A stretch of 64,000 nucleotides of DNA, from the NCBI RefSeq assembly GCF_042453785.1, contig NC_091671.1, forward strand, positions 12,532,001 through 12,596,000, in the 5' to 3' direction. This DNA comes from Malus domestica (Eukaryota; Streptophyta; Magnoliopsida; Rosales; Rosaceae). A model generated the notes under the pieces. That model worked only from the letters and a program-made list of their open reading frames with translations, searched no databases and was not told the DNA's origin. Of this stretch, positions 23,110-62,784 are shown piece by piece. Position 1 is the first letter of the stretch, and each line of letters opens with the position of its first letter. Both the position numbers and the translations under genes were made by a program.

Positions 23110-26100
23110 TCATTCCTCCTCAACTGAAAAATCAGGCTCCGCTGGCTTCTGCAATGAGCCAACGACCCCAGAATGCTTATTGGCACCACGTCTGGTGCTT
23201 GCAGCGAGCCTTGCAGCATAGGTAACCAAGTCCGACACAGGTGGAAGTTTTGCAGGCTCATTTTCTGTGTGGTTTTCTTTAGCCTTGAGTTCGGCTGCTT
23301 CCCTTCTTTTCTTACATCGACGCCATGCTGCCTGTATGAAACATGCAGACCATAATCTCCATTGATGTGAATAGAACCGGAACTTGTGTCTAAGTTGCTT
23401 GCTGTGAAGTCTTCTGAACTGGGATGCTACGAATTTCAAGTCCTCTGCTACTAGAGCAAATGCTTCTACTTCAGAGATGGATTTGACTGTGCGCGTTGAA
23501 GATGGCAGGATGACACTTGGACGAGGGTCCAAAGCCCATGTCAGCAGTTCCTCACCACAGAAGTCACCCGGACCAATACCGCATGAGTTGAAAAATCCGG
23601 TTCGACCACCATTTGTGGTGTAAGAATCAAGGTGGCCTCGAATTATGAAGAGCATTTCATTGACAGGGTCTCCTTCGCGGACTAGAAATGTGCCTTCGGT
23701 GCACAAGGCAGGTTTAAGCCTCTCACATATTGCATCCAGCATCCTTTCATCCATTTGATCGAACAAAGGAACCTGTTCACCAAATGAAAAAAGAAGACAC
23801 AAAAATTCGTAATGGTTACAATTACGATTATGCAGTAGTATAAAAAAAAATTATTTGTAGTTACAGGTTATCACTTACTCGTCGAACAAGGTCAAGGCAA
23901 AGGTGCCGCTTGATGTCCCTTCGAAGATCCATAGGTAGGCCATTGAGAAGAGCTTCCTCATCAACTCCTCGAGTAGCCAACCACTTGTATTGATCATACT
24001 TCCGTACAGACTGTCTTAGCTCCGGAGGCAGTTGCCTATGACGCATCCATTGTTCTGTGTCAGTTCTCTTTATCCTCCACTCTTCTAGTCTCACAGTTGT
24101 GGATTGGAGGTATGTCTGCAATTATAAAGGGTGATCGAAACTTAGAAATATGAACTTCGAAAAATATATGAGTTGTTTAGTAAAAGCCAAGTATTGAGAA
24201 GTCACTGATCAACGACTTACTTGCATATTACCAATCAGCAATGCAAAGAGAACCAGACCAAGAGTAGCGATGATTATAGCAAACATTATCTCTCCAACAT
24301 AAGTACTTGTTGAAAGATTTTGTCCCAAAGAACTGCACAAATTTCAACTAAAATTACTTAAAATTGTTTAAATCCAGAAAGCCAAAGCTTTTCATGCACT
24401 AAGCATTGTTAATCCCTTCGCAAACACATCTGGTGAAGAAGATTTGAAAAAAGGGTCGCTCAAAATTCTACAAAGAACATAAGTTGGTAATCTACTAATC
24501 TTAAATTATCAATCAGAAATGAGTGAACGCACATCATAAACAGATATTTGTAGAAACAACAGCTTACCTGAGGTTTCTTAGACCCCACCAGAGACAGTAA
24601 AAGTATTTGTTGAAGAACGACGAGGTTGTAACATCATATGTCACCGCGTCACCATAAATACCGAACTGATAATTATCTGGAATACAGAGATTTGTGACAT
24701 TACTCGACTGGTACCAGGACTTCCTGTTAGGGTCTTGAGCCCAACGACAGTCAAAGTAATCATATCTGCAAGACGTATTCGCAAGACCACAAACACTTCT
24801 CCAACAAGATTCTTGCCGCTCAATTGAAAGAAGGTACCAACAAGCTCCTAAAACCTTTTCACAGAGAAAAATAAAAAATCAGCAAGGCATATCAGTTTTA
24901 CATTTTGCTTACATATTTAATTGTTCAATGTATAAGAAAGGTGAGAAACCATCAAATGTCTGTTAGACAGTCAGGAAGATGAGCATGGCAGTTTAATTCA
25001 ATACAAGAATAGGAATTGAGGAATTTTGATTTTGGTCGTTATATGTAGAGTAATGACAGATGATCGTTTCAGGTTTCGACAAATCAATTAAGTCTTAAGA
25101 CCAAACAATCTGTTTCTGAAATACTTTTAACTGCAACACATTTTGCAAAAACCATGTAGGTTTGTAATTATTCCTTCTTTTGTGTTTCTATATGCTGGAG
25201 AAAGATAAGGTTCAGTGAAAATCCTTAGGCTTAGCCACTCGGTCTACCCATTCACTATATGCCATAAAGTGTTACTTGTGATCAAGCTGTAGATGCACAA
25301 CTATCTATCTTTTTCAAAGTTTCGAAAAGAGAAGCAACAAGCTTTTTTATACTTACATGACTTGCCAACATGTATAGCATCAGATTATATGCAGCCCCTG
25401 CCCAAGCTGTCTCTGTCACAACACCAGTGGCCTTAACTATTTGTGATGAGAGCGGATATATAAGAAAGAGCCTTGGTATGTATTGAAAGATTATGATGAA
25501 TCGAAGGACGTTTTTTGTGTTTGTCACTGTCGAACCGCTAAGGGTTGGGATTACAATCCAAATCAGGACCTAAAACAACGAAAATTTAGGACTAAATTTA
25601 GTGCATATTAGATTTGTCTCAATAGGGCTAGTACACGAAGTGTTCAAGTAACATACCTGAGGAAGGGGCAGCGCAGCAATGAGGTCTATCCAGAAATCCA
25701 GGCGTAGGTATCTCAATGCGATCTTTGAAGATTCTATTACAAGCTCTCCTCTCCCAAATACACGAGAGGAAGGTGCAATATAAGCTTTGCGAAAGTTAAT
25801 AAAAATTTGGATTATGTAAAAAACATCAGCCACTGATCGAACAAATGTTAGAACAACTTCAAGTGGTTCTCCAATACTAATGCAGAATTCATCTCTCGCC
25901 GATGGCAAGTAAAAGAATAGAGGGTCCACGAACAAAGAAACTAAACAAGTTACTAAGAAAATCTTGTTCCAACGGCGAACAGTCTGTCCTCGAGGATCTA
26001 ATATTTTCTTCTGCACTCTCTCATAGTCCTCGGAAAAGACTCTGGACAGAACTTTAGCCTTTAACGATTTTCCAGTATTCCGGGACACCTCCTTTTCGAA

Positions 26101-41572: not shown

Positions 41573-41859
41573 TTAGGTCGTCAAAATTTAGTATGCGCTG
41601 AAGCATAGGAAATAGGTATTTTCGAAAAAACAAAAAGGGGAATTTTAGTTACTAAGCTACAGTGGTGTCAGCGGTGGAATCTAATGGATCCACAACGGCA
41701 TGGCCGACGGTGATGATCCTGCTACTGAATCGGAGAAGAATATGGTTGGGCTATCATTGTATCATGATTTCTATATTGCTATATTTAATTTGGAAGAGGA
41801 TAAGGAATTTGTACTTAATGGTCGGTCCATGGATAGTTGCTCACCATTATTTGACGGGA

Positions 41860-41970
41860 AATTTGGAAAAGTAACCATATTTTAGACCCCATATAGAATT
41901 ATAGCCATCATTTTAATTTTATGATAATTCTAACCAAAACTTAATGTAAAAGTACTAATATACCCTTAAT
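41860..41970 (+). mobile_element. Left terminal inverted repeat of the 14.4-kb MULE nest
   Basis: This 111-bp arm (AATTTGGAAAAGTAACCATA to TACCCTTAAT) is the inverted counterpart of 56184-56294 with about 7 mismatches by eye. It encloses the MULE coding remnants and everything nested inside. No clear 9-bp target duplication remains outside. Confidence 0.8.
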
Positions 41971-42394
41971 GACAAAAAATTCCCCATTGCTCTTAACCAT
42001 GAAAAAACAACAATTAGTTGAGATCTTGAAGCATAAAAGAGGTAGCCTCTTAAATACTACTGAATACCCCTACTCTCGAACCCCTCCATTTCTTACACTT
42101 TTTTTTTAATCAATATATATATATATATGGGGTAGATATAGATATTCAAGTGTAATTAGAGAATGTGAAAATTGAAGATAACCCAGTAAACTAAACATAA
42201 AAATTAATCAAAAACTGAATCTTCGAAGCAAAATTTGAATCTAAAAATAAAGGAGCAAAAACTCTTTTAAGCTAAAATCTGTGTGAGGTTTTTCTGCTAA
42301 ACTGGTGATTGAAAATATAAAAGCCAATAATGTAATAAATCCCGAATAATATAAAAGCCAATAATGTAATAAATTCCGAAGAAAAACATTCACA

Positions 42395-43182
42395 TCATGC
42401 GCTGGAATGGAGTCTAATTGGATTCTTGCAAGTTTGGCGATTGTGGCATGTCCCACCACAGTGACTACACTTTTTCACTATCCTTTCCTCCCCTTGAGAT
42501 GGGATTCTGTTTGTCTTGCGTCTTCCAGATACAACTTGTCTAACTGGAGGTAACACAACTTTATTCTGCACCTCTTCTGGCACACTCAATTCACTCTTGT
42601 TTCCAACCGGCCAAACTGGCTTTGCATACGCTAGCACAACTACATTGGCTGTGTAGAATTTGGAGCACATATTGTACACTAATGTGTTGTGAATTCAACA
42701 TGCAGCAGTTGCATGGACACATGGAAGTTGGTCGACATCAAACCTTCTACATGTGCATGTCTTGGCATTTAGGTCAACTATATGATATAAGTTTGTCTCA
42801 TGTACTTGCAATGCATAGTGATTAATGGAAGATACTTGCATAGTTGTCAACCATGTGAATTTTTTTTTTTAAAATGCACACACAATACCTTGAAGAAACA
42901 CCAAAACCGAGAATATGTCTAACTCAAAACTCATATCTATTGAAGTCTCACTAATCTAGGCATTGTCTTGAAGAACTTGACTTGGTTATTCATCACCTAA
43001 AATGTCATCATTCTCTTGAATTGCCACTGTTGGTGATGGGGAACTGAATGTTGGGTGTTCATCTTTAAGTTCATTTAGAGGATATGTTGTGACATATAAC
43101 AAAATCTTGTCGGGTTTGCAGAAAGACTTTCACATACCCAACTAGTCACATCGTCATTGTCTACAATCTCCGTCATATTTTA
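42395..43182 (-). pseudogene. MULE transposase C-terminal remnant (SWIM zinc finger plus knuckle)
   Basis: On the minus strand: EIVDNDDVTSWVC (an acidic N-terminal-region motif of plant MuDR proteins) right at the gypsy junction, a broken stretch, then a SWIM zinc finger (CTCRRFDVDQLPCVHA), a TGA at 42695-42697, VYNMCSKFYTANVVVLAYAKP, PEEVQNKVVLPPVR, SQGEERIVKKCSHCGG and a CCHC knuckle (CSHCGGTCHNRQTC). The DDE catalytic core normally between the N-terminal domain and SWIM finger (several hundred residues) is missing: only about 345 bp separate them. The N-terminal part is at 55488-55693, on the far side of the gypsy insertion. Confidence 0.82.
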
Positions 43183-44686
43183 TGATAGGATTTTTAGGTA
43201 CCTTCGCAAAGAGGTTAAAATCACACAAAATCCTTGCAAGAGAACATGGTAGTTGCAGTATAAACGGCGCAAACAATGTCGTTTTCTGCTGGGATTGTTT
43301 AAAACAATGAATGAAAAACCCTAATCCTAGTTAATTATCTGAAAATAAAAATTGGAAAATGTTGATTTTGAATTTAAAAGTAATTAAAAATGAATTTTAA
43401 TAAAAGTAATTTAGGAAAAACAACTAATAACCAATTAAAAAGGAAACAAATCAAAGAGAAAAGGTTTTGAGAAACAAATTTAGAAAAGCACTAGGGTTCT
43501 GCCGTCCTCCTAACAATCCTACGTAATTATTCTAATTTCTTACGAATTACACATGCATATTTTGAAGGTTAGGTTTTTCTAAAATATATCCTATTTGGAA
43601 CCTCCAACATAGAACGTATATTTAACATGCAACATGTCCATGGCATCCATATCGGATGTGAACATGCAAGACTCATTAAGTTTTGTGAAAACCTTTTAAA
43701 AAAATCATATAACTCTTAAGACGTGTCGTCCATCCTAAATAGTTACACATGTTAACCACAAGAAGCCTTAGTCAATTTTAGGGGCAACCCTCCACCAAAA
43801 TTGCATCAAATTACTTTTCTAAATATCCTAATGGTCGTGAATCACTAAGACAAATAGATAGTTTAAACCAGTAATTAACAATCCAAAACTTGCATGCATA
43901 AATTCATAAGAAAATTAAAAAGAGACTACATTTTCTTGCTAAGGATCATGGCCTCACCCTAGCAAAGAGAATTAGTTACGCATATTGATAATAAAAATCA
44001 CAAAGTCTTTATTAAAAATAGAAAAAGAATGAAAAAACCTTGAAAGTATAAGTCTTGAAATCTCTAAGCTTTGCCCAAAATATTCTCTCCAAAAATTGCA
44101 TAAAAGAGAACCCTAGGGGCGGCCAAAAAGGCTTATTTATACTACTCTAATTAAAATCCTCCTAGTAAAGTTCTTAGAATAAGACTAGGAAACCTAATAA
44201 ATTAAAATAAAATAGGAAACATAATCTTAAAATTAACTTGGTAAATTTGCCCAAAAATCTAAACAACCACGTTTTGGACCCAATTCAGCTCCAAAACTGG
44301 CCCAAATAGTTGGATTTAAAGCTTGGGCTATTTTGAACACTTCTCTAGAAGGCCATAAACCCATCTAAGGTCATCTTGGGCTCCAAAAATGCAGTTTAAG
44401 CCTCAAAACATCACTTTCCAAGAACGCACACCGCTCCTCTAATAAATCGTCAAAAAATAACCGCTTGGTAGAAAAAATCCCAAATTAAAATGAATACGCC
44501 AAGAGACACACGAACATCCTCCAATTTGGATCGCTCCAAAATTCGTCTGTTTGGTCATATTTTGCTCTAGATGAAGTCGAATATCCTACATTGAAAATAT
44601 AAAGCAAAGTATCAAAATTCTACCAAAATAATTACCAAATTATACTAAGAATAGGGTAAAATATATAATATAATATTGACTCATCA
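43183..44686 (-). repeat. 3' LTR of the gypsy element
   Basis: 1504 bp with TG...CA ends. It matches the interrupted LTR at 51212-55487 closely along its length (for example CGCAAAGAGGTTAAAATCAC and AGACGTGTCRTCCATCCTAA in both), with scattered substitutions and short indels, which makes the insertion old. On the element strand it is preceded by GTTTGCGGGTATTT (44687-44700), the likely polypurine-type primer. Confidence 0.9.
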
Positions 44687-44705
44687 AAATACCCGCAAAC
44701 TTAGC

Positions 44706-45838
44706 TTTTTTCTTGTCCTCAAGCAAAATAAAACTAGAAAACAAAAATAAAAGCTAACAAACTAGAAACTTAACTAAAACTAAATGACAAAAAATTTCAC
44801 CTTCAAGTTGCAATACATAGAAAATGTTAAAAATCAGAATATATTTTCAAAAGTTTCAGCTAATCCCACTATAAAGTCTAAGCCATTTAGAAGTGATTGG
44901 AAAAGAATTCACAAACTTCCTTTGGTGTAAAGTGAACCAACATAGCTAAGGAGACTCGACTAAAACCCTTACTCCTTGTCCATTTATTTCTTACATACTT
45001 TATTTAAATATAACTGTTATATATATTTTTTTTCTTCTTATTTTCGATTTTTCTATTTTTTTTCTTCATCTTTTCTTCTTCTTCTTCTTCTTCTTTTTTT
45101 ATTTTTTTTCTTTTTCAGTAATAGTAGTGGTCGTGCAATGTCAATTCCCTGTAGCTTTCTCTCCAACCTATGTAACGAGCTTTAGGTCAATGACTCCCAA
45201 ACCACAAAGGTTTTAGGGCACTAGGTGTAGAACACCCCTAAGGGCTTATTAACTCGAGTTGAAAAGGCTACGAAACCAACTAACCATCCTGCCCCATGCT
45301 AAGACTCTATCGTTTGACGAGAGAATCACTCCTGATTAGGCAGGACTGGCCTGGTTACTAGGTAAAGCCTCGGGTGGAACAATTATTACTTTATTCATAA
45401 CAATAGCTAACTTTACTTAGCTAAGAAAATAAATTAAAATACACTTAGACTAAAAATAAGTGTTTCAATCTCACTCCCTGCAAGCCATGTTGATGTGAAT
45501 GTGCAAGGTTTCAAAGTATAACTCATGAATTAGTGTCTAAGCAACGATAAATAGAAAAGACTCTACTATGGGATTAACATTCACCATGTCCTTTTTTTTC
45601 TAACGTTTAAATAATCTATGGATATTAACTTAAAAAGAATGAAAATTTTGTTTTAACTTGACCCAAAAATTAAAATCCTAAAATTTTACTTTCCCACCCC
45701 CAAACTTATTTCACATTTTGTCCTCAAGGTGTGGAAAATGAAATAAACGAAAAAGAACAAAAATAATAAATCCTAAAATAAAACGTACAACAACTAACAT
45801 AGATAAACGAAATAAACTAGGACAATAAAAACAACACT
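44706..45838 (-). other. Gypsy 3' non-coding region
   Basis: Between the integrase and the 3' LTR. It holds CTT-rich tracts (45020-45120), a CCACCCCCAAACTTATTTC block (45696-45714) typical of this clade, and no gene. Athila elements can carry an env-like frame here; I see none. Confidence 0.5.
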
Positions 45839-46860
45839 TTAATATGGAACTGAATAACAACACTTTCTGCTCTGGTTGGAAATCTTTTCCGAGAATTTGT
45901 TTGTCATGGAATGCTTTTGTTTTGTCTTTGTATATGCATGCATTTTCATAAGCCTCAATACGAATTTCCTCAAGCTCATTGAGCTACAGCTTATGTTTTT
46001 CCCATGCTGAATCATAAGCAAAATTCAACTCCTTAATAGCCCAAAACGCTTTATGCTCTAGCTCCATAGGTAAATGACAGGCCTTGCCATACATGAACCG
46101 AAACAGGGACATCCCAATCGATGTTTTAAATGCTGATTTGTAGGCCCAAAGTGCATAATTTAATTTCAAACTCTAGTCTTTACGAGTAGACCCAACTGTT
46201 TTCTCTAAAATATGCTTTATTTCCCTTTTTGAAACTTCAACCTGCCCTGATGTTTGTGGATGATAAGGAGTGGCAACACGATGAGATATCCCATATTTTG
46301 CAAGCAACGCAACAAACTGTTTATTAATAAAATGTTTTCCCCCATCACTAAGTATAACTCACGGGATTATAAACCATGGAATAATAACCCTTTGAAGGAA
46401 TTTCAGAACTTCTGATCCTTGATTGGTTGGTGCTGCAGTAGCCTCAACCCACTTAGAAACATACTCAACAACCACTAAGATGTATTGATTGCCATGTGAC
46501 TATGGGAATGGTCCCATAAAATCAACACCCCAAACATCGAATAATTCAACTAAAATACCATGTTGTGGCATCTCATTTCGTTTGGATTGATTTCCCACTC
46601 TTTGACACTTATCACAAGCTTTGCACCAATGGTTGGCATCCTTGAAAGGTGATGGCCAAAACAACCCACTCTGTAATATTTTTTTTGCTGTCCTCTTGGG
46701 CCCAAAATGTCCACCACGTGCATAGTAATGGGCAAATTTCAACATACTCTCTTGCTCCCTTTTAGGAATACAATGCCTTATAATATGATCTAGACAACAT
46801 TTGTATAAATATGGCTCATCCCAAAAATAATGTTTAACATCTGCTAAAACTTCTTTTTCT
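45839..46860 (-). pseudogene. Gypsy integrase, broken
   Basis: Starts with an HHCC zinc domain (GGHFGPKRTAKKILQSG; CKACDKCQR), then the core WGVDFMGPFP, a stop at about 46498, [54 protein letters not shown], and [19 protein letters not shown]. Catalytic Asp, Asp and Glu positions can still be traced, but several stops break the frame. Confidence 0.8.
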
Positions 46861-47085
46861 GCTGAAACGAAAAATCAGGAAGTAACGCTCATTTTACCGA
46901 ATAATTCACAAAATCAGTAAACCACAGGGTTCTGTTGTGGATAGTGTAAAGTTGTTCATTTGGAAAACTTTCACTCAATGGGAGTGAATCTTCTTCAACA
47001 ATAGTTGGAAGAATTAACCTTGATAAATGGTCAACCACCACATTTTCACTACAATTTTTATGTCAAATTCTTGAAGCAAAAGAAC

Positions 47086-48429
47086 CTAACGAATTAATCT
47101 AGGCTTAGCATCTCTCTTAGACAACAAATATTTAACGGCAGCATGATCAGTATAAGCAATGACCATAGCTCCAACCAAATGCGACCGAAACTTCTTTAAA
47201 GCAAATACAATTGCCAATAATTCCTTCTGTGTGGTTGCATAGTTGAGCTGTGCATCATTGAGAGTACGACTTGCATAATAAATGACATAAGGAATCTTGT
47301 CTTTACACTGCCCTAAAACTGCCTTAACGACATAATTTGAAGCATCACACATCAACTCAAACGGTAAGCTCCAATCCGGGACTAAAGTTAGAAGTGTCTT
47401 CAACCTATTGAATGCCTCTAAACAATCTACATCAAAATTGAAAACTGCATCCTTAGCCAATAAATTACATAAAAGACGGCTAATCTTAGAGAAATCTTTG
47501 ATGAACCGTCCATAAAAACCTCCATGCTCAGGAAATGACCTCACACTTTTGACCATGGTGGGAGGTGGCAATTTGTCAATAACGTCAATCTTAGCCTTAT
47601 CAACTTCAATTCCCTTGTTGGAAATTAAGTGGCCTATAACAATACCTTGCTTAACCATGAAGTGACACTTTTCCCAATTTAACACCAAGTTTGTCTCTTG
47701 ACATCGTTGAAGAACCAAAGATAAATTTTGTAAGCATTGGTTAAACAAATCCCCAAATATTGAAAAATCATTCATAAACACTTCTACAATCTGCTTAACC
47801 AAACCAAAGAAAATACTCATCATACAACGCTGAAAAGTAGCCGGTGCATTACATAACCCAAACGGCATCCATTTGTAAGCAAATGTTTCAAAAGGACAAG
47901 TAAAAGTTGTTTTCTCCTGATCTTCCGATGCAATTGGAATATGATTGTACCCGAAATAGCCATCTAAGAAACAATAAAATGTTCGCCAAGCCAATCTTTC
48001 CAACATTTAATCAGTAAAAGGTAAAGGAAAGTGATATTTTCTGGTTACTGAATTAGGCTTCCTATAATCAACACACATGCGCCAGCCAGTAGTTAAACAT
48101 GTAAGAACCAGCTCATTGTTATCATTCTTGACTATCGTAATTCCAGTATGCTTAGGCACAACCTGTGTAGAACTCACCCATTGGCTGTCTAAAATTGGGT
48201 AAATCATAATTGCGTCAAGAAGTTTCATTACTTCAGTTCGAACCACTTCCTTCATGATTGGATTAAGGCACCTTTGGGCATCAACTATGGGTTTAATGCC
48301 TTCTTCCATTAAAATTCTATGTATACAAATAGTTGGGCTGATTCCTTTAATATCTGCAATAGTCCACCCCAATGTATCCTGATATTTACGCAACACTCTA
48401 AGCAATTTTTCCTCTTCAAAAGGTGTCAA
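47086..48429 (-). pseudogene. Gypsy reverse transcriptase and RNase H, broken
   Basis: Two frames separated by one stop at 48007-48009. RT motifs: RMCVDYRKPNSVTRKYHFPL, GYFGYNHIPI, KWMPFGLCNAPATFQRCMMS, and the catalytic box VFMNDFSIFG, where the usual FMDD is FMND, so an essential metal-binding aspartate is lost. RNase H follows with LMCDASNYVVKAVLGQ, YYASRTLNDAQLNYATTQKE and AYTDHAAVKYLL. Confidence 0.88.
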
Positions 48430-48467
48430 GTTTGCTGCAATAATAACTAGCAGCGTCTAGGCAACGC

Positions 48468-49338
48468 CTAAATACAATATTTCAAGTGTTCGGGCAAATG
48501 TTTCAGCTCTAATTTTGGTGGCTGTAATTTGGACGGATTTAATGGATGTTTTGGCTTTCCCAAACTTTCATAAACATGTCTCCATTTAGACAAAAATTTA
48601 GGCACGCTGTCTAGAGCTTGAACAACTTCTAGAATGTCTTCATCATATGTTTCTGCATCAAAGTTCCCATATAAAACCTGCTGCAAATGATCTTTTATTG
48701 AATGAGCCATATAATTTGCATGAACAAACCCATCCAACACATCAAAACGCATACAGTCAAGCATTTCTGCTGGCTGTTTGGCTGCTTCAAACAAATTAAA
48801 AACCACTGAATGATCTTGGACCCTTAATGTTAAAGTTCCCGCTTCCACATCAATTAATGTTCTTGCTAGTGCCATAAATGGTCTGTAAATCTTCATCCAT
48901 GTCCGAAACAACAAAATATGCTGGCAAGTAGAGATTGTCAACTTTGATGATCAAATCTTCGATGATGCCCCTAGGATATGTAACTGATTGGTCAGTTAAT
49001 TGTAGGATAACTGAAGTAGGATTTAGCTCTCCTTGTCCTAGCCGCTAAAAAACAGAATAGGGCATTAGATTAATACTAGCACCTAAATCAATTAAAGCAC
49101 GCTTAAAATCAGAATTTCCAATAGTGTAAGAAATAGTGAAACTCCTTGGATCTTTCTTTTTCGGGGGTAGTTTGTGCTGTAAAAATACACTACATTGTTC
49201 AGTGAGAATCACTTTTTTGAAGTCCACGAGTTTTTTCTTGTGTGTGCATACATTCTTTAAAATTTTGGCATAAGATGGAATCTTCTTAATAGCATCCAAC
49301 AATGGTAGATTAATCTGAACATTGGCTAATGTTTGCAT
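48468..49338 (-). pseudogene. Gypsy protease region, broken
   Basis: The minus strand encodes INLPLLDAIKKIPSYAKILK, then ALIDLGASINLMPYSVF with the aspartic protease D-x-G-A-S-I-N-L-M-P signature of the Athila/Tat group, a stop at 49045-49047, LTDQSVTYPRGIIEDLIIKV, and a linker frame to 48468 (LEVVQALDSVPKFLSKW-like). The family usually shows ALCDLGAS; here C is I. Confidence 0.75.
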
Positions 49339-49415
49339 GAAATCTCTTAATTGTTGATCTTTGAGCTTTGGTTGTAACCTTTCATGATAGGGAAGAGGAT
49401 GATCATAAACACGTT

Positions 49416-50920
49416 CTAATTTCTGTGCAGGGGCAAATTCTGAGTTGTTTGAAATCTATCCAGAAAAAGATGCAGAATATGTTTCTGCAGTTGTAGATAC
49501 TGGGTTGTTAATTTATGCAGCTTTGTCCTTACTATCAATTTTTCTTTGTCACGATTATCGTAACTTTTTCCACTGCGTAAAGCTCTCACTGCATTGCAAT
49601 CTATTGTACCCCTTGGATTAGGCACTATTTGACTAGGAAACTTCCCTTTTTCCCTTTTCTGTAATATTACCTGCTAGCTACCCAAATTGTCTCTCCAAAT
49701 TAGTTATGGAAGCCTACATATTCTACATGTTTTGATGCATTGGCTGCTATATCTTTTTACAAGTTCTGATTGCTTTGCTCAAAATTGATGTGAGTAATCT
49801 CTGCCAACTTGTCAATTGCAATTTCCCAAGAAGCTTTGGCTGGTGTAGCAGGTTGCTAGACTAGTGGTGGAAATGGTGGTTTTACTTGCTGCTCACCACC
49901 CCATTTTAAATTTGGGTGATCTCTCCAACTTGGATTTTAAAATTTTGAATAAACATCATTTCTTTGCCTTGGATAATTGTTGAATGCGTTAACTTGCTCT
50001 ACAACAAAATCTGGATATGCATCTCTCTGTGGACAGCCCATAAAATCATGTGTGGGTTGGCTACAAATCTCACAATGTGCTGGTGCAGGTTACTAGACAG
50101 CAACTGCTATTTTCTGCAAAATCATGTCGAATTTTGCATCAAATTTTTCAATTTTTTTTTCTATCTTTTCAATTTGAGCAGAAACATGTGGAGACCCCAT
50201 AAACATTTAAAAAATGCCCTTATTTTGTGTTTGATCCTCTACCCATTGTTAAGATTCAGATGCCATGTTGTCAAACAATTGATAAGCTTCCTAGGCATTT
50301 TTAGTTAAATATGAACCTCCTGATAAAGCATGAACATGATTCTTGGTGTTTGAATTTAGTCCTCTGAAAAATATGCCCATCTGTGTGTCTCATTTAATGC
50401 CTGCGTGGGGACACTTTCTAAATAACTCCTTAAAACACTCCAATGCCTCGTGAAACTCTTCATTAGGCTTTTGGGAAAAAGATAAAATTTGAGTCCTCAT
50501 ATCAAGAGTTTTAGAAATTGGATAATATTTGTTAAGAAATTTATCACTCATATGTTCCCAAGAAGTGATACTGGCAGATCGTAATGTAAGCAGCCATGTT
50601 CTTGTCTTGTCCTTCAATGAATAAGGGAAAAGATGGAGTTGGATTGACTCTGCAGTAAACTCATTCACTATAATATTTCTGCACCCCATTAAAAACTTTG
50701 TGATATGCATATTAGGATCCTCATGAGTTAAACCATGAAAAGTAGGCAGAATCTCCAACATGTGATGTCTGATCTCGAGTGTGTCGTCTTCCTCTTCTGG
50801 ATAAACAATGCAACTTGGTAATTCATTAGCATGGGCTGCTAATGTATCCCTCAATGGACGCCTAGCAGCTAGTATGGCAAAAGCCATGGTATCCTTACTG
50901 TCCAAAATCCCAGAAAACAA
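49416..50920 (-). pseudogene. Gypsy gag, broken
   Basis: The 176-codon frame 50390-50920 matches the retrotransposon gag core (LEILPTFHGLTHEDPNMHI; FPYSLKDKTRTWLL; WEHMSDKFLNKYYPISKT). After a stop, reading continues through GLNSNTKNHVHALSGGSYL to a zinc knuckle CEICSQPTHDFMGC near 50050-50092 and a Pro/Gln-rich tail. Frames are interrupted by several stops. Confidence 0.8.
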
Positions 50921-51188
50921 ATTTTTTAGGAAAGTGTCCTCCGATGAAGGTTCACACGCTAAAAATTGCTCCCTGCACCTTTGTTGTAAAGTGCGTTCCG
51001 GCTTTGGATCAAATTCTATTAGCTATTGATTTTGGGATCTGGTGCAAACCATGTACATGATCTGTCTAGATTATGGGCTCTGCGCAAAGAAAATGAAAAT
51101 TAAATTAATATAAATAATTTTTTTAAAATTTTATTTACAACAATAATTAACAAAGAATTATGATTAACACAAATTGTTTAAAAACAAT

Positions 51189-51205
51189 CCCCGACGACGA
51201 CGCCA
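51189..51205 (-). promoter_or_regulatory. Gypsy primer-binding site, tRNA-Asp-like
   Basis: On the minus strand, TGGCGTCGTCGTCGGGG lies a few bases after the 5' LTR end. It differs by two bases from TGGCGCCGTTGCCGGGG, the site complementary to plant tRNA-Asp used by Athila/Tat elements. Confidence 0.75.
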
Positions 51206-52093
51206 ATTTCTTGATAGGATTTTTAAGTACCTGCGCAAAGAGGTTAAAATCACACAATACTTGCGCAAGAGAACAAGGTAGTTGTAGTATAAATGGCTCA
51301 AGCAATGTTGTTTTCCGCTGGGATTGTTTAAAACAATTAATTAAAAACCCTAATCCTAGTTAATTATCTGAAAATAAAGATTGGAAAGGGTTGATTTTGA
51401 ATTTAAAAGTAATAAAAACGAATTTTAATAAAAGTAATTTAGGAAAAACAACTAATAACCAATTTTAAAAGGAAACAAATCAAAGAGAAAAGGTTTTGAG
51501 AAACAAATTTTGAAAAGAACTAGGGTTCCGCCATCCCCCTAACAATCCTACGTAATTCTTCTAATTTCTTACGAATTACACATGCATATTTTGAAGGTTA
51601 GGTTTTCCTAAAATATATCTTACTTGGAACCAACAACATAGAACGTATATCTAACATGCAACTTGTCTATGGCGTCCAGATCGAATGTGAACATGCAAGA
51701 CTCATTAAGTTTTGTGAAAACCTTTTGAAAAACCACATTACTCTTAAGACGTGTCATCCATCCTAAGTAGCTACACATGTTAACCACAAGAAGCCTTAGT
51801 CAATTTTAGGGACAACCCTCCGCTAAAATTGTATCAATTTACTTTTCTAAATATCCTAATGGTCGCGAATCACTAAGACAAATAGATAGTTTAAACCGGC
51901 AATTAACAATCCAAAACTTGCAGCATAAATTGATAAGAAAATTAAAAAAGACTACATATTTTTGCTAAGGATCATGGCCTCACCCTAGCAAAGAGAATTA
52001 GTTACGCATATTGATAATAAAAATCACATAGTCTTTATTAAAAATAGAAAAAGAATGAAAACACCTTGAAAGTATGAGTCTTGAAATCTATAC

Positions 52094-54846
52094 CAAACTG
52101 ACACACCCCGACCCGGAATGCCCACTAGGACTCCGAAACAAGCTGTGCTAGCCGACACCTGGAAGGTGATAAAGCTACGAAGTGCAGTGATGTGGAAAAT
52201 GTGAATAAATTTAAAACCTAAAAGTGCCTAATTATAAGAGTGCGCTGTGAGCGGGAATGAACCCATTTCATACATGATGACGGAGTATAAGTACAGTACA
52301 GTAAATAGGTTGAGGAATTATACCATTGAAGGTAATCATATACACCAAGACTTGTCAAGAATCCTCGTTGATATGAAAGCTCAACTACTAAACCTGGAGG
52401 TGCGAAAACAAGGGTGAGTGGGCCTGAAAATAAAGTTTTAATTAAAAACCTTTTGAAAATGTTATAACCAGTGGCGAAGCCAGGAATTGTAGAGGGGAGG
52501 GGTGACATTTAAAAGGTTTAAGGTCCTAAAAAATGTGGACATCCGTTCAAGGTCCAAGTCTTGGGTTGGCAAGAAGATTATGTGAACTACCCAGAATATT
52601 CATAGGAGAATTTGTACTGACCAAAATATTCGAAATATTCGAAAGAGTATTTGAACTACATTATTATGTGGAGGAGGATTTAAGCATCCTTTATCCTTTC
52701 TTGTTGTATCATGTCATTACATAACTATATAACGATTAAAGTTCTAAGACGTAAGTGCTAGATGAGCGGTGGACGTGACCCAACGCTTAGGTGAGGATCT
52801 AGATGAACTAGGTTGTACGTATAAATAAGTGTTTATTTATTATATAGTGATAATATCTAAAAAAATTGATTAAAAAACACATAATATATAAAAATATTGA
52901 CAATTTTATTTGTTATTTGTTGAATTTGATGTAAGACATAAAAATTCAAAGCATTACAAGTTCATAATACAACAAAATATTTTTGAAGCTAGTATGAATT
53001 TATAGTTACTTTTAACATAAATAAGATTGGCAAATACGTAGTTTGAAAACTATGTGGGCAAACTCATTAGACAATAACTAAAAAACAAATATAAGAAAAG
53101 TACATGTAAATATCAAAGTTAGGTGGTGCAAATTGGTTGGACAATAGTTAAAATTGGGTGAATTTTACAAGGACACGTGGGATGGGATGGAAGAGAGAGT
53201 CTCTTCTTCCTCCCTCGTTTTCTTCATTGGAACCTGAACTCCATTTCAGAAACTGCAAATTACAGGTCTCCCTTCCTCCTTTCTTTGGCCTTGGGTATTT
53301 TGAAAAAAATGGACAGCTCACGCGCAGCCTGCGCTACGCAGCAGAAGGGAAACCTAGAAAGCCAGAGCACCAGACGGAATTTCATCGCTTTCAACGTGAT
53401 CAAAGAGGCAGAACCATCACTCCTGGGCTTGATTTCCAGCGAGAGGAGGGGCGGCCGCCCCTCCTCGCCCTTATGTAGCTTCGCCTATGGTTATAACCTC
53501 TCGCCGTAAAACATATATAGTTTCCAAAATATACATACTACGTATAGTATGAAAATATTTACCGTAGCTTGCAAAACATAAATAAGGCATGATATATCAA
53601 AATCACAAAGTCTCCACAGTAATATAAGTAAAATCAGGTGCTCAACAACCTATGCTAGCATATCAGTCGGAGTCGCCTAATGTGACTTGTACGACTGAAC
53701 CTATTGCTCATCAATCTATGCTAGCACACGAGTCGAAGTTGCCTAACGCGACTTGTACGGCAGGACTAGGTGTAATAATATACGCTTTAGTGCTACAATC
53801 ACGTGAAGACTAGCGCTATTCGCTGTCACATATGAGTTAGAATTGCCTATTGCAATCTGTACGACAAGACTAGCACCAATTTGGATCCAAGGCGAGTGTG
53901 CGGTGCTGATGTGAACATGTGAAAGATTAGCCTAGCCTTGGGCTGAGCACTAACATGTGGGTGTAGCAATGATGAGCAGACTATATGAATATATGCATGC
54001 CATAATGATGCAATAATTCTAGCCAACATAATAAACTTACCTGAACTTACATGTGCATCCCGTAGGATCATTTTGGCATTTCACAGTTTCATAACAATGC
54101 AACATTTCTTAAGTAGGATCATTTTGGCATTTCACAATTTCATAACAATGCAACATTTCTTAATCATGGCATGAAATTCACAAATCAATTCAAAAGCATT
54201 TGTGGAAACTATAAAATACACACACACACACACACACTATAAAAAGGAAAAGACCCACTCACCTGAAGTCCGTGCTACAACTCCCTAGCATGAATATCGA
54301 GGCATCTCAAACGATCAGCATCTAGAACAATTATCAAATCACGTCTCAGAATTCTTATCGATAGAACACGTAACTTACATAAAAACGCATCCCCAAGGAT
54401 GTTCTAGAATGATTTGAAACCTATTGACTTAAAGTCAACCGTCGGTTAAAAGTCGACGGTAGGGTCTACAACCCTACGTAACCCGATTCAGAAGATCCAC
54501 ACCTCGGATTTCCGATCCGTAACTTCCAAAACTCCACATTATACTTCTAGAACATCATACTAAAGTTTCATTACAATCCAATACCCCAATGGAAATGGGA
54601 AGATGTCACAATGGATTTCGTGTATAAGTACTTCTCTAGTTTGACTGCTTTACCCTTATGTTAACTATGCTCTGAACATTTGTAGTTTATGGGTTCTACC
54701 TATTACTGCGCACTCACTTTATTAGTTTAAATAAGTTATAGTTTCGGTTTTAATTTATTCACATTTTACATCACTCACACTTTTGGTTACATCATCTTTG
54801 GGTGACGGCCAGCACGCCTCGTCTCCGGTTGAGGTGTGTTAGTTTG
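52094..54846. mobile_element. Unclassified 2.75-kb element with long imperfect TIRs
   Basis: It sits inside the gypsy 5' LTR: the uninterrupted LTR reads on from GAAATCTCTAAG to CTTTGCCC, and here the same point is opened. Ends are CAAACTGACACACCCC (left) and GAGGTGTGTTAGTTTG (right), inverted. Behind them about 150 bp of diverged inverted sequence contains GTGATGT(G)AAAATGTGAATAAAT and a GAGTGCGC block in both arms. The interior has GCTAGCA(C/T)A(C/T)(G/C)AGTCG and GACTTGTACG repeats at 53650-53870 but no transposase. No clear target duplication. A relative lies at 104-250. Confidence 0.65.
52469..53489. mobile_element. Non-autonomous hAT element with perfect 8-bp TSD
   Basis: 1021 bp flanked exactly by GTTATAAC (52461-52468 and 53490-53497). 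Ends are CAGTGGCGAAGCCAGG and, inverted, CATAGGCGAAGCTACA. An 8-bp duplication and short CA-starting inverted ends are hAT hallmarks. No transposase is visible. The GC-richer part at 53158-53489 with overlapping 106- and 110-codon frames might be captured host sequence, but I cannot assign it. A perfect 24-bp palindrome lies at 53443-53466. Confidence 0.85.
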
Positions 54847-55437
54847 CTTTGCCCAAAATCTTTTCTCCAAAAGTTGCATAAGAGAGAACCTTAGGGCCGG
54901 CCAAAATGGCTTATTTATACTACTCTAATTAAAATCCTACTACTAAAAGGTCTTAGAATAAGACTAGGAAACCTAATAAATTGAAATAAAATAGGAAACA
55001 TAATCCTAAATTAACTTGGTAAATTCGCCCAAAAATTTGCACGGCCACGTTTTGGACCCAATTCAGCTCCAAAACTGGCCCAAAATAGCTGGATTTAAAG
55101 CTTGGGCTATTCTGAACACTTCTCCAGAAGGCCATGAACCCATCTCAGGTCATCTTGGGCTCTAAAAACGTAGTTTAAGTAAAAAAACATCACTTTTCAG
55201 CAACTCGCATTGCTCCTTTAATAAATCGCCAGAAAATAACCGCTTCGTAGAAAAATTCCAAATTTTGATACGAACATACCAAGAGACACACAAACGTCTT
55301 CCAATTTGAATAACTCCAAAATTCGTCCGTTTGGTCATGTTTTGCTTAAGAGGAAGTCAAATATCCTACAGTGAAAATATTAAGCAAAGTATAAAAATTC
55401 TATCAAAATAATTACCAAATTATACTAAGAATATGGT

Positions 55438-55439
<2 letters not shown>

Positions 55440-55474
<35 letters not shown>
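55440..55474. repeat. (TA)n microsatellite in the gypsy 5' LTR
   Basis: About 34 bp of TA repeats. The matching place in the other LTR (about 44660-44672) is a short ATATATAATATAAT, so the tract expanded after insertion. Confidence 0.9.
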
Positions 55475-55478
<4 letters not shown>

Positions 55479-55487
55479 GACTCATCA

Positions 55488-55693
55488 TTTTGCATCCCTA
55501 AGTTGCTCATGCATTGATAATATACTGAGATTCTAAATTCACTCGGACTAACACGAAGACATTTATATATATCATGTATAAGATCTTGATGAGTAACTTT
55601 GGTTGACACTACCATTGCTTTCGCTTGACCAAATATGTATTGGCTATCAACCCTCCTCCATCCGTAATGGACCACGGTCACAAATTGAGTCAT
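55488..55693 (-). pseudogene. MULE transposase N-terminal remnant
   Basis: The minus-strand start MTQFVTVVHYGWRRVDSQY continues through KVTHQDLIHDIYKCLRVSPS and SVYYQCMSNLGMQN, the N-terminal domain of plant MuDR-type transposases. It ends exactly at the gypsy LTR junction; the continuation (EIVDNDDVTSW) is at 43182 and below. The predicted 93-codon frame running on into ESILYIYIYI reads into the LTR (TA)n tract and is not real beyond 55488. Confidence 0.8.
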
Positions 55694-56183
55694 ATTCTGA
55701 AAGAAAAAAACTAATTAGCGCATCTAACTAACCTATAAATATATTTAAAATAGGAAAATATTTTAAAGAAAAATTAATTAGCACATATAACTAACCTGCA
55801 TATGCAAAGTGCCAAAGAAACACTGATATGGTTGCTTTATTGGAGCTTCTAATTCTTCAATCAACTTGTTGATTTGTCGAAGGATTCATAATATATTCAC
55901 CTGCATTGGAACATGAAAATCATTAAAGTTTTGACTAAAACCATGATATGAAATATCAAAAAGTTGATTTAGGAATTGGAAGCTACAATTGACCAACCAT
56001 ATCATTGTTTCTTGGACAATTTGAAAAGGCTATTGCGTCCTGCGCCTTTTTTTTTGGTCAAAACATCCCTACTGCTTAATTATGCAAAATCGGCAAAGAG
56101 TGCTTTTCTGGTTTAAGGTGAGAAACTAGAAGGTTGCAAGAGAGTTTGAAGAAGGTTTTATTTTTGTTGTGAGAAACCCTAAT

Positions 56184-56294
56184 ATTAAGGGTATATTAGT
56201 ACTTTTACATCAAGTTTTGGTTAAAATTATCATAAAACTAAAATTGTGGCTATAATTCTATATAGGATCTAAAATATGGTTACTTTTCCAAATT
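56184..56294 (-). mobile_element. Right terminal inverted repeat of the MULE nest
   Basis: The 111-bp partner of 41860-41970. Together they bound a Mutator-like element that, without the gypsy insertion, would be about 2.1 kb, too short for a full transposase and consistent with the missing catalytic core. Confidence 0.8.
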
Positions 56295-56930
56295 TTCAAA
56301 ATTGGAGATCAGGATTTCTCCCTGCGACTGAGCTTACTCGTATGGCAGTGTCGATTGAGTATTGAATGGGGGTATTTATTATGCTGAAATCAATAATACT
56401 AATTTTGAAAATATTTTTAATAGAAAAGAAATTAAAATAGAACAATAATTTAGTTCTTCTTTGAGCAAACACCAAAAATTGAGGATAATACTATTTTTAT
56501 TACCTACCCTGCTTCCTTATCTAATACTGCACCAAATGCTTCACTAAGTCATTTCTGCTTAGTATATTCTAAATTAGTCCAACTTAGCACCTAATTGTCG
56601 AACAATCGTTTTGGCTTCCGAAAATAAATTCTGTTTTGAAAACTTAGGCAACCAAGGTTGTAGGCGGTGTTGGCTGTTGATATTCAATACCAAAATCATT
56701 CGGTCAATGAAAACGATTAATTTTATTTATTATAACTTACATTTTTAAGTAGGATGACAATCTACACGAATATTCTTAGAAAATTAGACCCTCTAATTCG
56801 ATCCCCAAAGAGGTTTGAATGTACAAAGTGTATGTTTTATCAAGGATCATAGAGGATTGATTTAATCAAATGAGTTCACAAGGTATGTTTTGTGATGAAC
56901 TAAACTCCATTTTTTTTGTGGTATCCAAAC
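56295..56930. other. Intergenic, nothing recognised
   Basis: AT-rich sequence between the MULE end and the SINE. No supportable gene. Confidence 0.5.
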
Positions 56931-60144: not shown

Positions 60145-62784
60145 TCATGGGGGCTTACCATTTGTTACACAAAAAGACTCCAACCTGGGCTCAGTTAAAT
60201 CCACTGTCTCAATATCAGTGGCACGACAACTCCTGGCATTTGAAGTCAAGAGGATCAATCTCTCCATATAGTTATCTGAAACAGAATCCGTGTCTCTTTC
60301 AGCACATAGGTTACGGTCAATGTCTAGTGGCAGTGAACACCGAACCGAACCTTTACTGGATTTCGCTCGCCTTAGCTCCCCAGCATCTTTATGGCCATCC
60401 ATGCCTATGTGCTGTCCAGAAGAATACTCAGATCAAGTCTCTATACGCATTGCTCAAATCATACAATATGACCTCCATACGACATATGAAAAGTTAAAAA
60501 ATGACATCAACCACATAGGTGCGTAATTACCTGAAAAAGATTTACAGAAAAGTTTTTCCTTTTAGATCTCTCTGGTGAAATAGTCGAAAGGATTTGGACA
60601 ACCTCACTCATGTTTGGTCTAGCATCAGGATCCAACAGTAGACATTCTTTTGCCAAGTAAGCCATTATCTGCATCTCCTCTTCTGGGAAGTTTCCATTTA
60701 AATCTGGATCCGCCAACTCTGTGATTACTCGCCTACTATCCAGTAAACGAGGTGTAGCCTACAACAAAGACAAAAATGTTCATATGCTACATCAATTTTT
60801 ATTAACCCATAGACGTATTTCTGAACTGGTTTTCTACGATAAATTCATGTTAATCAGCAGCATCGTGGTAACAAAATGGAAATTCATGCAAAAGAAATGA
60901 TGGATATATGTTCCTAGTAATAAAGTTGGCAATTTTCTATACCCATATGACAAGGCTTTCTTCTCCCTTAGTTGTTGATTTATGGATGGGCTTCCGACCA
61001 GTGATAAGCTCAAGAAGAACTACGCCAAAACTGAAAACGTCTGACTCAAGAGATGCTCTTCCAGCAATAGCATATTCCGGTGCAAAATAACCAAAAGTCC
61101 CCTGCATTCTTGCTGGAGAACTAGATGTGCTAGGGACACCATCAGCTTTTAAGCGTTTCGCCATACCAAGATCAGTTATCTGCACATATATAACAAATAT
61201 AAGAATTATAAGAAATGCGTGCCAAATATCCGCTTCAAACTAGGCTATCTTTCAGTTCCAAAAGAGAAATGTAAACCGTGTTCGTAGCCAAATATCCACT
61301 TCAAACTAGCCTATTATTATTTCCCTTGTTTCATAAAAGAATCGGAGATTTCAATCGATGTTTCAAATAATCACATCTTACTTTTGCTTGCCAATTTTCA
61401 TCCAGAAGAATGTTTGTGGATTTGACATCTCGATGCAGAATTCTTGGAGCAGCTGCTTCATGGAGATATTCCAAACCCCTTGCAGCTCCAATGGCAATTG
61501 AAACTCGAGTGACCCAATCCATGTTTTTCCCTTCATCCCCGTTCAAACAATCTCTCAGGTTACCGTTATCCATGTACTCAAATATCAATAACCTCTCGAC
61601 ATTTTTTCCATGGGTTTCAAAGCAGTAGCCAAGCAAAGGCACCACATTAAAATGATTAAGTCTGGCTAACATTTCAATCTGAGAAAAAAACAGATTGATT
61701 AAGTTGTTTCTTCTGTTAAGAAACCAATAAAAAGGATGTTGATGTATATCGACAAATGCACAGAAAGATGAGGTATTACCTCTGTTAAAAAGACAGAGTC
61801 CATGTCTGGCCCTTTCAAAGCTTTTAGACGCTTAACTGCCACAACTTCGCCATCATTGAGCTGGCCACGATAGACATAGCTGCTTCCACCAAGTCCTATT
61901 AGATTGGAATCTGAAAACTTATTGGTTGCACTTTCCAGTTCAAAATATGAAAATTGAATAATTGCTCCAGGTGTAGCTCGGGGTTTGCTCCTCAATACAC
62001 AAGAGGTAAAGCAGCCTGTTAACTGAAATGGAATAGTTATAGCAGTTCCTGTACAGAGAAAAATATACAAACAAAAATTATCAGGTTTAAAGGAGTACTA
62101 TGAAATGAACAGGCTGAAAAGATGAGCGGGATTTATAGACTAAGAAACAAACTCTGCTAAAACACTCCATAGATCAAATTACCTGTGCCTTTACCGATGG
62201 GGGAATCCATATTTATTTTGGTCTCAAACAATGAGGAACTCTTATAGCTAATTAAGTTGGAAGCACTATTGCAACTTGATTCCTTATCAGGCGAAAATAT
62301 TGGCGCTTGAATAGAGCACTTAGCCCTTCGGCAGAAGTAGCATACCACCGAGGAAATAAAAGCAAGGGTTGTGAGTATGACACATGCTAAAAGAATAATC
62401 ACAACAACTTTGCTCGAAAGATGATTTTTTGAAGGCTTTGCTGCATTGAGAGATCCTGTTAAGAAGAAACACAGACACAGAACAAGTCACAATCAAATGA
62501 CTTCAGAATTCAGATAAAGAAGTAATGTCGAAGATATAACAAAGTCTATCTAACTTGTAAATCAAAGATATAACAAAATGTCAGATGTATGTAAAAAAAA
62601 TATCTGGAAATTCTTTGTGGAATAGATTATGGGTGCGTCAATACATATAAGTCAAAGATGGGATGACCGTAAACAGGATTCTCACAGTAAATCAAAATCC
62701 ATGGTCCCATAAACCAATCAGCTTTAAAAAACAACATGATTTATCATTGTTCTATGTAAAGTGGATCGGTTGACTGATGTGTGC

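What the first reader, a model, noticed from the sequence alone, without database searches (positions are those of the whole stretch)
41860..56294. Four transposons nested inside one another, each with readable borders
Order of insertion can be read directly: a Mutator-like element with 111-bp inverted ends, then a gypsy element inside its transposase gene, then a 2.75-kb long-TIR element inside the gypsy 5' LTR, then a hAT element inside that with a perfect GTTATAAC duplication. Few loci give four ordered, internally datable layers in 14 kb.
Basis: partly seen in the sequence, partly recalled or inferred. Interest (0 to 1): 0.75.

Follow-up and report, generated by a model that had tools for sequence, protein, structure and literature searches.

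The report
Nested transposons with a patched-in layer

Summary
The four-fold nest is real; the window's own genome holds copies without the inner layer for layers 2, 3 and 4. Layer 1 is a Mutator-like element whose transposase remnant lacks the catalytic core; its ends are clear but no target duplication is readable. Layer 2 is a Ty3/gypsy element: 7 of 7 sibling MULEs show the empty site, and the transposase frame is open across it. Layer 4 is a hAT element with a perfect 8-bp duplication, as in 5 of 5 close siblings. Layer 3 is misread: not a 2.75-kb long-TIR transposon but three pieces of one LTR-retrotransposon lineage: 1454 bp of an LTR in antisense, about 40-50 bp of integrase gene, and 222 bp of a second LTR's end in sense. 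It has no target duplication, 4-5 target bases are lost, and no second copy spanning the joints was found. Its outer ends stop 6 and 2 bases into the tRNA primer-binding site, where retrotransposon cDNA begins. I think chimeric, aborted reverse-transcription products were end-joined into a break, as known from yeast and mouse zygotes; copying of genomic repeats during repair is the main rival. Only gypsy LTRs and hAT siblings give usable dates.

The parts
41856..56298 (-). Layer 1: MULE, deletion derivative; ends GGGAAATTTGG.../...CCAAATTTTCA; no readable TSD
   Evidence: TIRs; sibling ends and TSDs; whole-length sibling L021
41859..41970 (.). MULE left TIR (conserved 112 bp)
   Evidence: 93.75% to 56184-56295 inverted
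56184..56295 (.). MULE right TIR (conserved 112 bp)
42398..42868 (-). MULE transposase C-terminal remnant: SWIM finger 42698-42868, in-frame stop, zinc-knuckle-like tail
   Evidence: PF04434 SWIM E=3.8e-8; zinc knuckle read by eye
43075..43177 (-). MULE transposase N-terminal region, part after the gypsy site
   Evidence: frame open across the site
55490..55714 (-). MULE transposase N-terminal region, part before the gypsy site
   Evidence: one relative, P0121, 85% over 67 aa; frame; no Pfam family
43178..43182 (.). gypsy TSD, left copy TTTTA (one transition from TTTTG)
55488..55492 (.). gypsy TSD, right copy TTTTG
43183..44686 (-). Layer 2: gypsy 3' LTR
44687..51211 (-). gypsy internal region: gag 50393-51022, RT/RNaseH 47089-48006, integrase pieces 46503-46874 and 46176-46358; interrupted by stops and frameshifts
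   Evidence: Pfam (the integrase core piece scores 26.6 against a cut-off of 32.6); broken frames; relatives in Malus and Prunus
51212..52089 (-). gypsy 5' LTR, part left of layer 3
   Evidence: target site in 12 sibling LTRs
54847..55487 (-). gypsy 5' LTR, part right of layer 3
52090..54846 (.). Layer 3: composite insert of three retrotransposon pieces, no TSD, 4-5 target bases lost (borders +/- 3 bp)
52090..52098 (-). left end of the composite: spacer GTT plus first 6 bases of PBS (TGGTAT), antisense
52099..54581 (-). LTR-A piece: last 1454 bp of an LTR of about 2.6 kb (hAT and one TSD copy not counted)
   Evidence: solo LTR L065, 2593 bp, TSD CATTG
54577..54629 (+). integrase-gene fragment (overlaps both neighbours by microhomology)
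54620..54841 (+). LTR-B piece: last 222 bp of an LTR of about 2.5 kb
   Evidence: solo LTR L069, 2520 bp, TSD TCCAA
54842..54846 (+). right end of the composite: spacer GTT plus first 2 bases of PBS (TG)
52469..53489 (.). Layer 4: hAT element, 1021 bp, apparently non-autonomous
   Evidence: no transposase recognised by eye
52461..52468 (.). hAT TSD GTTATAAC, left copy
   Evidence: single copy or variant in siblings
53490..53497 (.). hAT TSD GTTATAAC, right copy

Best explanation
Shown: a MULE that had already lost its catalytic core received a Ty3/gypsy element inside the remnant of its transposase gene. The 5' LTR of that gypsy element later received a composite insert made of three pieces of a second LTR-retrotransposon lineage, and a hAT element then jumped into that insert. 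Inferred: the composite was made by aborted reverse transcription. One end is the start of minus-strand cDNA (end of LTR-B, with 2 bases of the primer-binding site). It switched at a 5-base microhomology into integrase sequence of the same lineage, and was joined with 1-2 shared bases to a plus-sense LTR-A strand copied 6 bases into the primer-binding site. This chimeric cDNA was not integrated by integrase but end-joined into a double-strand break in the gypsy LTR, losing 4-5 bases and making no target duplication.
For: Order: 7 of 7 sibling MULEs that hold the region lack the gypsy (L021-L027, of 20 stretches fetched). 12 of 12 sibling gypsy LTRs that I read lack the composite (the 12 best of the 39 other rows that span the site, so chosen for being continuous). 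7 of 7 LTR-A siblings lack the hAT by match spacing; 5 of the 7 were read at the site, 2 with GTTATAAC and 3 with a variant. Composite: LTR-A and LTR-B are true LTR ends (solo LTRs L065 and L069 with 5-bp TSDs; a primer-binding site follows in 8 of the 22 ends listed). The integrase piece lies in elements with B-related LTRs about 1.1 kb downstream in the same orientation, 5 of 5 loci, so all three pieces come from one lineage. Joints share GTGTA and 1-2 bases. Both outer ends stop inside the PBS, 6 and 2 bases in; of the 22 ends, besides these two, 8 continue into a PBS, 10 go into unrelated DNA, 1 is doubtful and 1 (L090) stops after the GTT spacer. No TSD, 4-5 target bases lost. No second copy over the joints. 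In yeast, 40 of 56 Ty1 3'-LTR inserts at breaks carried nucleotides present only in cDNA (PMC10802722, passages).
Against: The right-end PBS stretch is only 2 bases plus a 3-base spacer. The LTR-A and LTR-B arms are 66% alike, so two different source elements must have met. The LTR-A piece is long for a strong-stop product and must come from a later intermediate. Nothing shows that the donors were RNA or cDNA rather than chromosomal copies, which also carry LTR and PBS. The divergence clock does not itself show that the MULE is older than the gypsy (24/796 against 0.041 per lineage).
Confidence: 0.6

Rival explanations
1. Break repair by copying chromosomal repeats: a double-strand break in the gypsy LTR was filled by synthesis that jumped between genomic copies of the lineage (SDSA / polymerase-theta type filler DNA), without any reverse-transcriptase product.
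For: No TSD, small target loss, microhomology at joints and several donors fit filler DNA equally; the lineage is abundant (2917 and 2087 first-look candidates), and chromosomal 5' LTRs carry the same PBS.
Against: Gives no reason why all three donors are one retrotransposon lineage and why both outer ends fall within 6 bases of the PBS start.
Confidence: 0.28
2. Stepwise history: ordinary insertions of two related retrotransposons in opposite orientation, followed by deletions that left two LTR ends facing outward.
For: Solo LTRs and other copies of both subfamilies exist.
Against: The gypsy LTR resumes within 4-5 bases on the other side, so both deletions would have had to stop at almost the same target base and near each PBS; no TSD remains.
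Confidence: 0.08
3. One reading: a genuine 2.75-kb DNA transposon with long terminal inverted repeats.
For: The ends match as inverted repeats, CAAACTRACACACC and about 66% over 185 aligned positions.
Against: The arms are 3' ends of two LTR subfamilies, the right arm being closer to other loci (83-90%) than to its partner; no second copy spans the joints among 40 scored of 359 candidates; no TSD.
Confidence: 0.03

Closest known systems
Capture of Ty1 cDNA at double-strand breaks in yeast (PMC10802722, passages read; Moore & Haber 1996 and Teng et al. 1996 seen only in the reference list of PMC4516963)
   Same: LTR-end inserts with cDNA-only nucleotides; inserts of two to four joined fragments (most of those, however, of mitochondrial DNA); made by end joining
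   Different: Induced breaks in yeast; here an old natural event in a plant, mechanism inferred
RT-product-mediated break repair in mouse zygotes (PMC4516963, abstract and passages)
   Same: Truncated LTR-retrotransposon pieces, usually without TSD, 1-5 bp microhomology between joined pieces
   Different: Induced breaks; no PBS-ended, outward-facing LTR pair in the passages I saw
Template-switch complex LTR elements of Triticeae (PMC1950507, abstract and passages)
   Same: Chimeric products of reverse transcription between related plant elements
   Different: Those carry flanking TSDs and are taken as integrase products; this one has none and is inverted
Nested LTR retrotransposons of plants (PMC6911290, abstract and one section)
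   Same: Younger elements inside older ones
   Different: That study found the lowest nesting frequency in LTRs and the integrase domain; here an LTR was hit, probably not by integrase

Membership tests
Mutator-like element (layer 1) | long TIRs shared with a family | tested here: met
   112 bp, 93.75%; siblings
Mutator-like element (layer 1) | 9-11 bp TSD | tested here: not met
   5 of 9 in this copy; of 13 siblings with both ends held, perfect in 9, 8 of 9 in one with the end moved by a base, none in three. The name rests on TIRs, transposase remnant and the siblings' TSDs, not on a TSD of this copy
Mutator-like element (layer 1) | MuDR-type transposase | tested here: inconclusive
Ty3/gypsy LTR retrotransposon (layer 2) | two LTRs TG..CA and 4-6 bp TSD | tested here: met
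   TSD 4 of 5, with empty sites
Ty3/gypsy LTR retrotransposon (layer 2) | gag, RT-RNaseH, then integrase in that order | tested here: met
   (integrase core below its cut-off, zinc-binding domain above); Ty3-G Gag-Pol second among 12 solved-structure matches
Athila lineage (layer 2) | lineage by RT tree and tRNA-Asp-like PBS | not tested
   recalled likeness only; no tree built
hAT transposon (layer 4) | 8-bp TSD and short TIRs with GGCG | tested here: met
   perfect TSD here and in 5 of 5 siblings at 94-96%; ends CAGTGGCGAAGC / CATAGGCGAAGC
hAT transposon (layer 4) | hAT transposase | not tested
   none recognised by eye among frames of 50 aa or more; no profile search was run (the one asked for fell)
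Integrase-made LTR retrotransposon insertion (layer 3) | LTR termini at both edges with 5-bp TSD | tested here: not met
   edges lie inside the PBS; no TSD
Reverse-transcription-product capture at a break (layer 3) | no TSD, truncated pieces, microhomology joints | tested here: met
Reverse-transcription-product capture at a break (layer 3) | pieces derive from cDNA, not from chromosomal DNA | tested here: inconclusive
   ends 6 and 2 bases into the PBS fit cDNA ends, but chromosomal 5' LTRs carry the PBS too

The most novel reading that the evidence does not exclude
Pairs of LTR 3' ends facing outward, with both outer ends cut a few bases into the spacer and primer-binding site, are a recurrent by-product of aborted reverse transcription that plant genomes take up at breaks and that can be mistaken for long-TIR transposons. 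L090 may be a second case: two LTR-B ends back to back, 579 bp, 90.7% self-inverted, one outer end stopping after the GTT spacer.
Probability: 0.3. Interest if true: 0.6.

Novelty: new variant of a known kind. Interest (0 to 1): 0.42.

Why it matters
If the composite is captured cDNA, it is a fossil in a plant chromosome of a process shown with induced breaks in yeast and mouse, with ends that can be searched for genome-wide (LTR end + spacer + partial PBS). It also shows how two LTR ends in opposite orientation can pass for a long-TIR transposon. The nest itself is ordinary.

Tried and rejected
Rejected: long-TIR DNA transposon for layer 3. Rejected: simple solo LTR for layer 3 (no TSD, two orientations). 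Considered and rejected: dating the MULE by its TIRs (7 of 112 differ, but TIRs need not be identical at birth). The excess LTR divergence right of the insert (Fisher p = 0.002) turned out to be one 200-bp patch, 44369-44568, with 37 of 200 sites different against 86 of 1296 elsewhere; not explained.

Led nowhere: two DNA patterns in viral contigs, 0 matches each. P0121 ends at the gypsy site but on a 763-bp contig, so it proves nothing about the site. The search for solo LTRs looked for CA plus the 5 bases before the LTR end in 8 loci: two (L065, L069) gave solo LTRs with like ends; L065 also gave one more 5-base match further on, L066, L067, L068 and L072 gave matches that I took as chance, L070 none, and in L071 no start was found. 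Literature searches: (8 of 10 used); in these listings and the passages read I saw no plant report of PBS-ended, TSD-less, outward-facing LTR pairs, which is not a proof of absence.
Full report
The window lies in contig C11 (12532001-12596000) of a 651-Mb genome of 19 contigs. Contigs C1 to C17 are each over 31 Mb by the contig lengths and hit positions shown, and the best named matches of the gypsy reverse transcriptase are mostly Malus and Prunus, although the top row by E-value is Hibiscus at 66%.

Layer 1, MULE. The inverted ends 41859-41970 and 56184-56295 are 93.75% alike over 112 bp. A genome search with the right arm (40 of 314 candidates scored) gave a family, from which I fetched 20 stretches. 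One, L021 on C12, has both arms over their whole length (2072 bp, 89.0% left, 92.6% right) without the gypsy, so it is the same deletion derivative. In 13 siblings with both ends held, the usual termini are GGGAAATTTGG...CCAAATTTCCC with a perfect 9-bp target duplication in 9, 8 of 9 in L021 with its end moved by one base, and none in three (L030, L032, L034). The window copy has GGG on the left but TCA instead of CCC on the right, and only 5 of 9 flanking bases agree, which random pairs of 9-mers from its flanks do in 8% of draws. So the element is a MULE by family, but its outermost border is not 'readable' in the usual sense; one flank may have been altered. The transposase remnant has an N-terminal part (no Pfam family; one relative, P0121, 85%), a SWIM finger (E = 3.8e-8) followed by an in-frame stop, and a zinc-knuckle-like tail (read by eye). 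About 200 bp separate N-terminal part and SWIM region, so the catalytic core is gone (inference from size; no catalytic domain was hit in the four pieces scanned). L021 shares the derivative, so the loss predates the gypsy.

Layer 2, gypsy. LTRs 43183-44686 and 51212-52089 + 54847-55487, minus strand, TG...CA, flanked by TTTTA and TTTTG. In 7 of 7 sibling MULEs that hold this region (L021-L027 of the 20 stretches) the site is uninterrupted; the target reads CAAAA in four and CAAAC in three, so the left duplicate probably changed by one transition. Across the site the transposase frame is open when one duplicate is dropped. Gag, RT-RNaseH, integrase zinc-binding and integrase core pieces lie in Ty3/gypsy order on the minus strand (the core piece scores below Pfam's cut-off); the frame is broken by stops and frameshifts. 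The likeness to Athila and to a tRNA-Asp primer site is recalled, not tested.

Layer 4, hAT. 52469-53489, 1021 bp, with GTTATAAC on both sides. Genome search (40 of 396 candidates scored) gave five siblings at 94-96%, ending at the same bases (in L046 the first base is changed), each with its own perfect 8-bp duplication. Of two further loci at 75-76%, L047 shows a duplication only if its end is moved four bases out, and L048 is incomplete. At the site in layer 3, 7 of 7 LTR-A siblings are uninterrupted by match spacing; 5 of the 7 could be read there, two with GTTATAAC and three with a variant.

Layer 3, the composite. The arms called TIRs are 66% alike over 185 aligned positions, and the right arm is 88% like a 112-bp stretch at the window's start. 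Genome copies of the left arm (40 of 2917 candidates scored) include some that begin at TGACACACC and some that continue outward into ACCAAAC; in L006 and L007 the continuation is GCTCTGATACCAAAC, the complement of GTT-TGGTATCAGAGC, a primer-binding site of initiator-tRNA type (tRNA identity recalled). Of 8 loci tested, L065 of this family is a solo LTR of 2593 bp with CATTG on both sides, and L069, of the right-arm family, a solo LTR of 2520 bp with TCCAA on both sides. So the left arm is the end of an LTR in antisense (LTR-A, 1454 bp present) and the right arm the end of a related LTR in sense (LTR-B, 222 bp present; other copies of it 83-90%). Between them, 54577-54629 matches other loci at 87-94%. 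In two of the five I looked at, a frame with few stops reads IPQWKWEDITMDFV there; the stretch around it in one locus hits the integrase core domain weakly (E = 0.0013, 19.4 bits, below Pfam's cut-off of 32.6). All five such loci fetched carry a B-related LTR (67-75% at its start) about 1.1 kb downstream in the same orientation. Joints: A/integrase share 1-2 bases, integrase/B share GTGTA.

The insertion point was read in 12 sibling gypsy LTRs, the 12 best of 39 other rows that span it (40 of 872 candidates scored); all are uninterrupted, 8 of 12 read AATCTCTAAGC and four differ by one substitution. The window has GAAATCT | insert | CTTTG, so CTAA(G) was lost and nothing was duplicated. The insert begins with ATACCAAAC (6 PBS bases and spacer, in antisense) and ends with GTTTG (spacer and 2 PBS bases). 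One search lists 22 LTR-like 3' ends in the held loci: the window's two, 8 that continue into a PBS, 10 that go into unrelated DNA, one doubtful match and L090, which stops after GTT. The search with a probe over both joints found only the window itself (40 scored of 359 candidates).

Mechanism. Both outer ends lie where retrotransposon cDNA starts, all pieces are one lineage, joints show microhomology, and there is no sign of integrase action. I therefore prefer capture of chimeric reverse-transcription products at a break. In yeast, 40 of 56 Ty1 3'-LTR inserts at breaks carried cDNA-only nucleotides, and inserts of two to four fragments occur, mostly of mitochondrial DNA but also of Ty DNA (PMC10802722, passages); in mouse zygotes joined retrotransposon pieces share 1-5 bases (PMC4516963, passages). 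Plant template-switch complexes have been described, but with flanking duplications (PMC1950507, abstract and passages). Copying from chromosomal repeats remains possible and would differ only in the source of the pieces.

Dating. Gypsy LTRs: 123 differences in 1496 sites, K2P 0.088, 0.041 per lineage (0.034-0.048); without the odd 200-bp patch 86 in 1296. MULE, window branch against L021 and L022: 24/796, 0.030 (0.018-0.042), not different from the gypsy (p = 0.18) and, if anything, lower, so the clock does not show the MULE to be older. hAT, changes private to the window copy: 17/988, 0.017, lower than the gypsy (p = 0.0002); its siblings have 9 to 14 private changes. At a recalled rate of 1.3e-8 per site and year the gypsy would be about 3.4 million years old, at a recalled slower rate of 4e-9 about 11 million. 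Layer 3 has no clock of its own and lies between gypsy and hAT by position.

Verdict. A good, verifiable nest; three of four layers as stated, with a caveat on the MULE's missing duplication; the third reassigned. Ordinary as a nest, of moderate interest for the composite layer.

Noticed in passing
L090 (G000:C17:14768200-14769070), 149-727: Two LTR-B 3' ends back to back with outward 3' ends, 90.7% self-inverted, next to a pol stretch; one outer end stops after the GTT spacer. Possible second case of the layer-3 structure.
   Followed up: partly
window 44369-44568 against the 5' LTR: A 200-bp patch with 37 differences while the rest of the LTR pair has 86 in 1296; perhaps conversion or recombination with another copy.
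   Followed up: partly
window about 98-270: Truncated LTR-B-type 3' end in antisense orientation.
   Followed up: partly
window 55798-56030: Imperfect palindrome (81-bp arms, 79%) in the MULE right arm, present in part also in siblings L021 and L022.
   Followed up: no
window 2147-2522: Perfect tandem duplication of 188 bp.
   Followed up: no
window 23113-23850, 61334-61831, 17170-17775: Gene pieces: cyclic-nucleotide-binding domain, protein kinase domain, and a broken Copia-type polyprotein.
   Followed up: no
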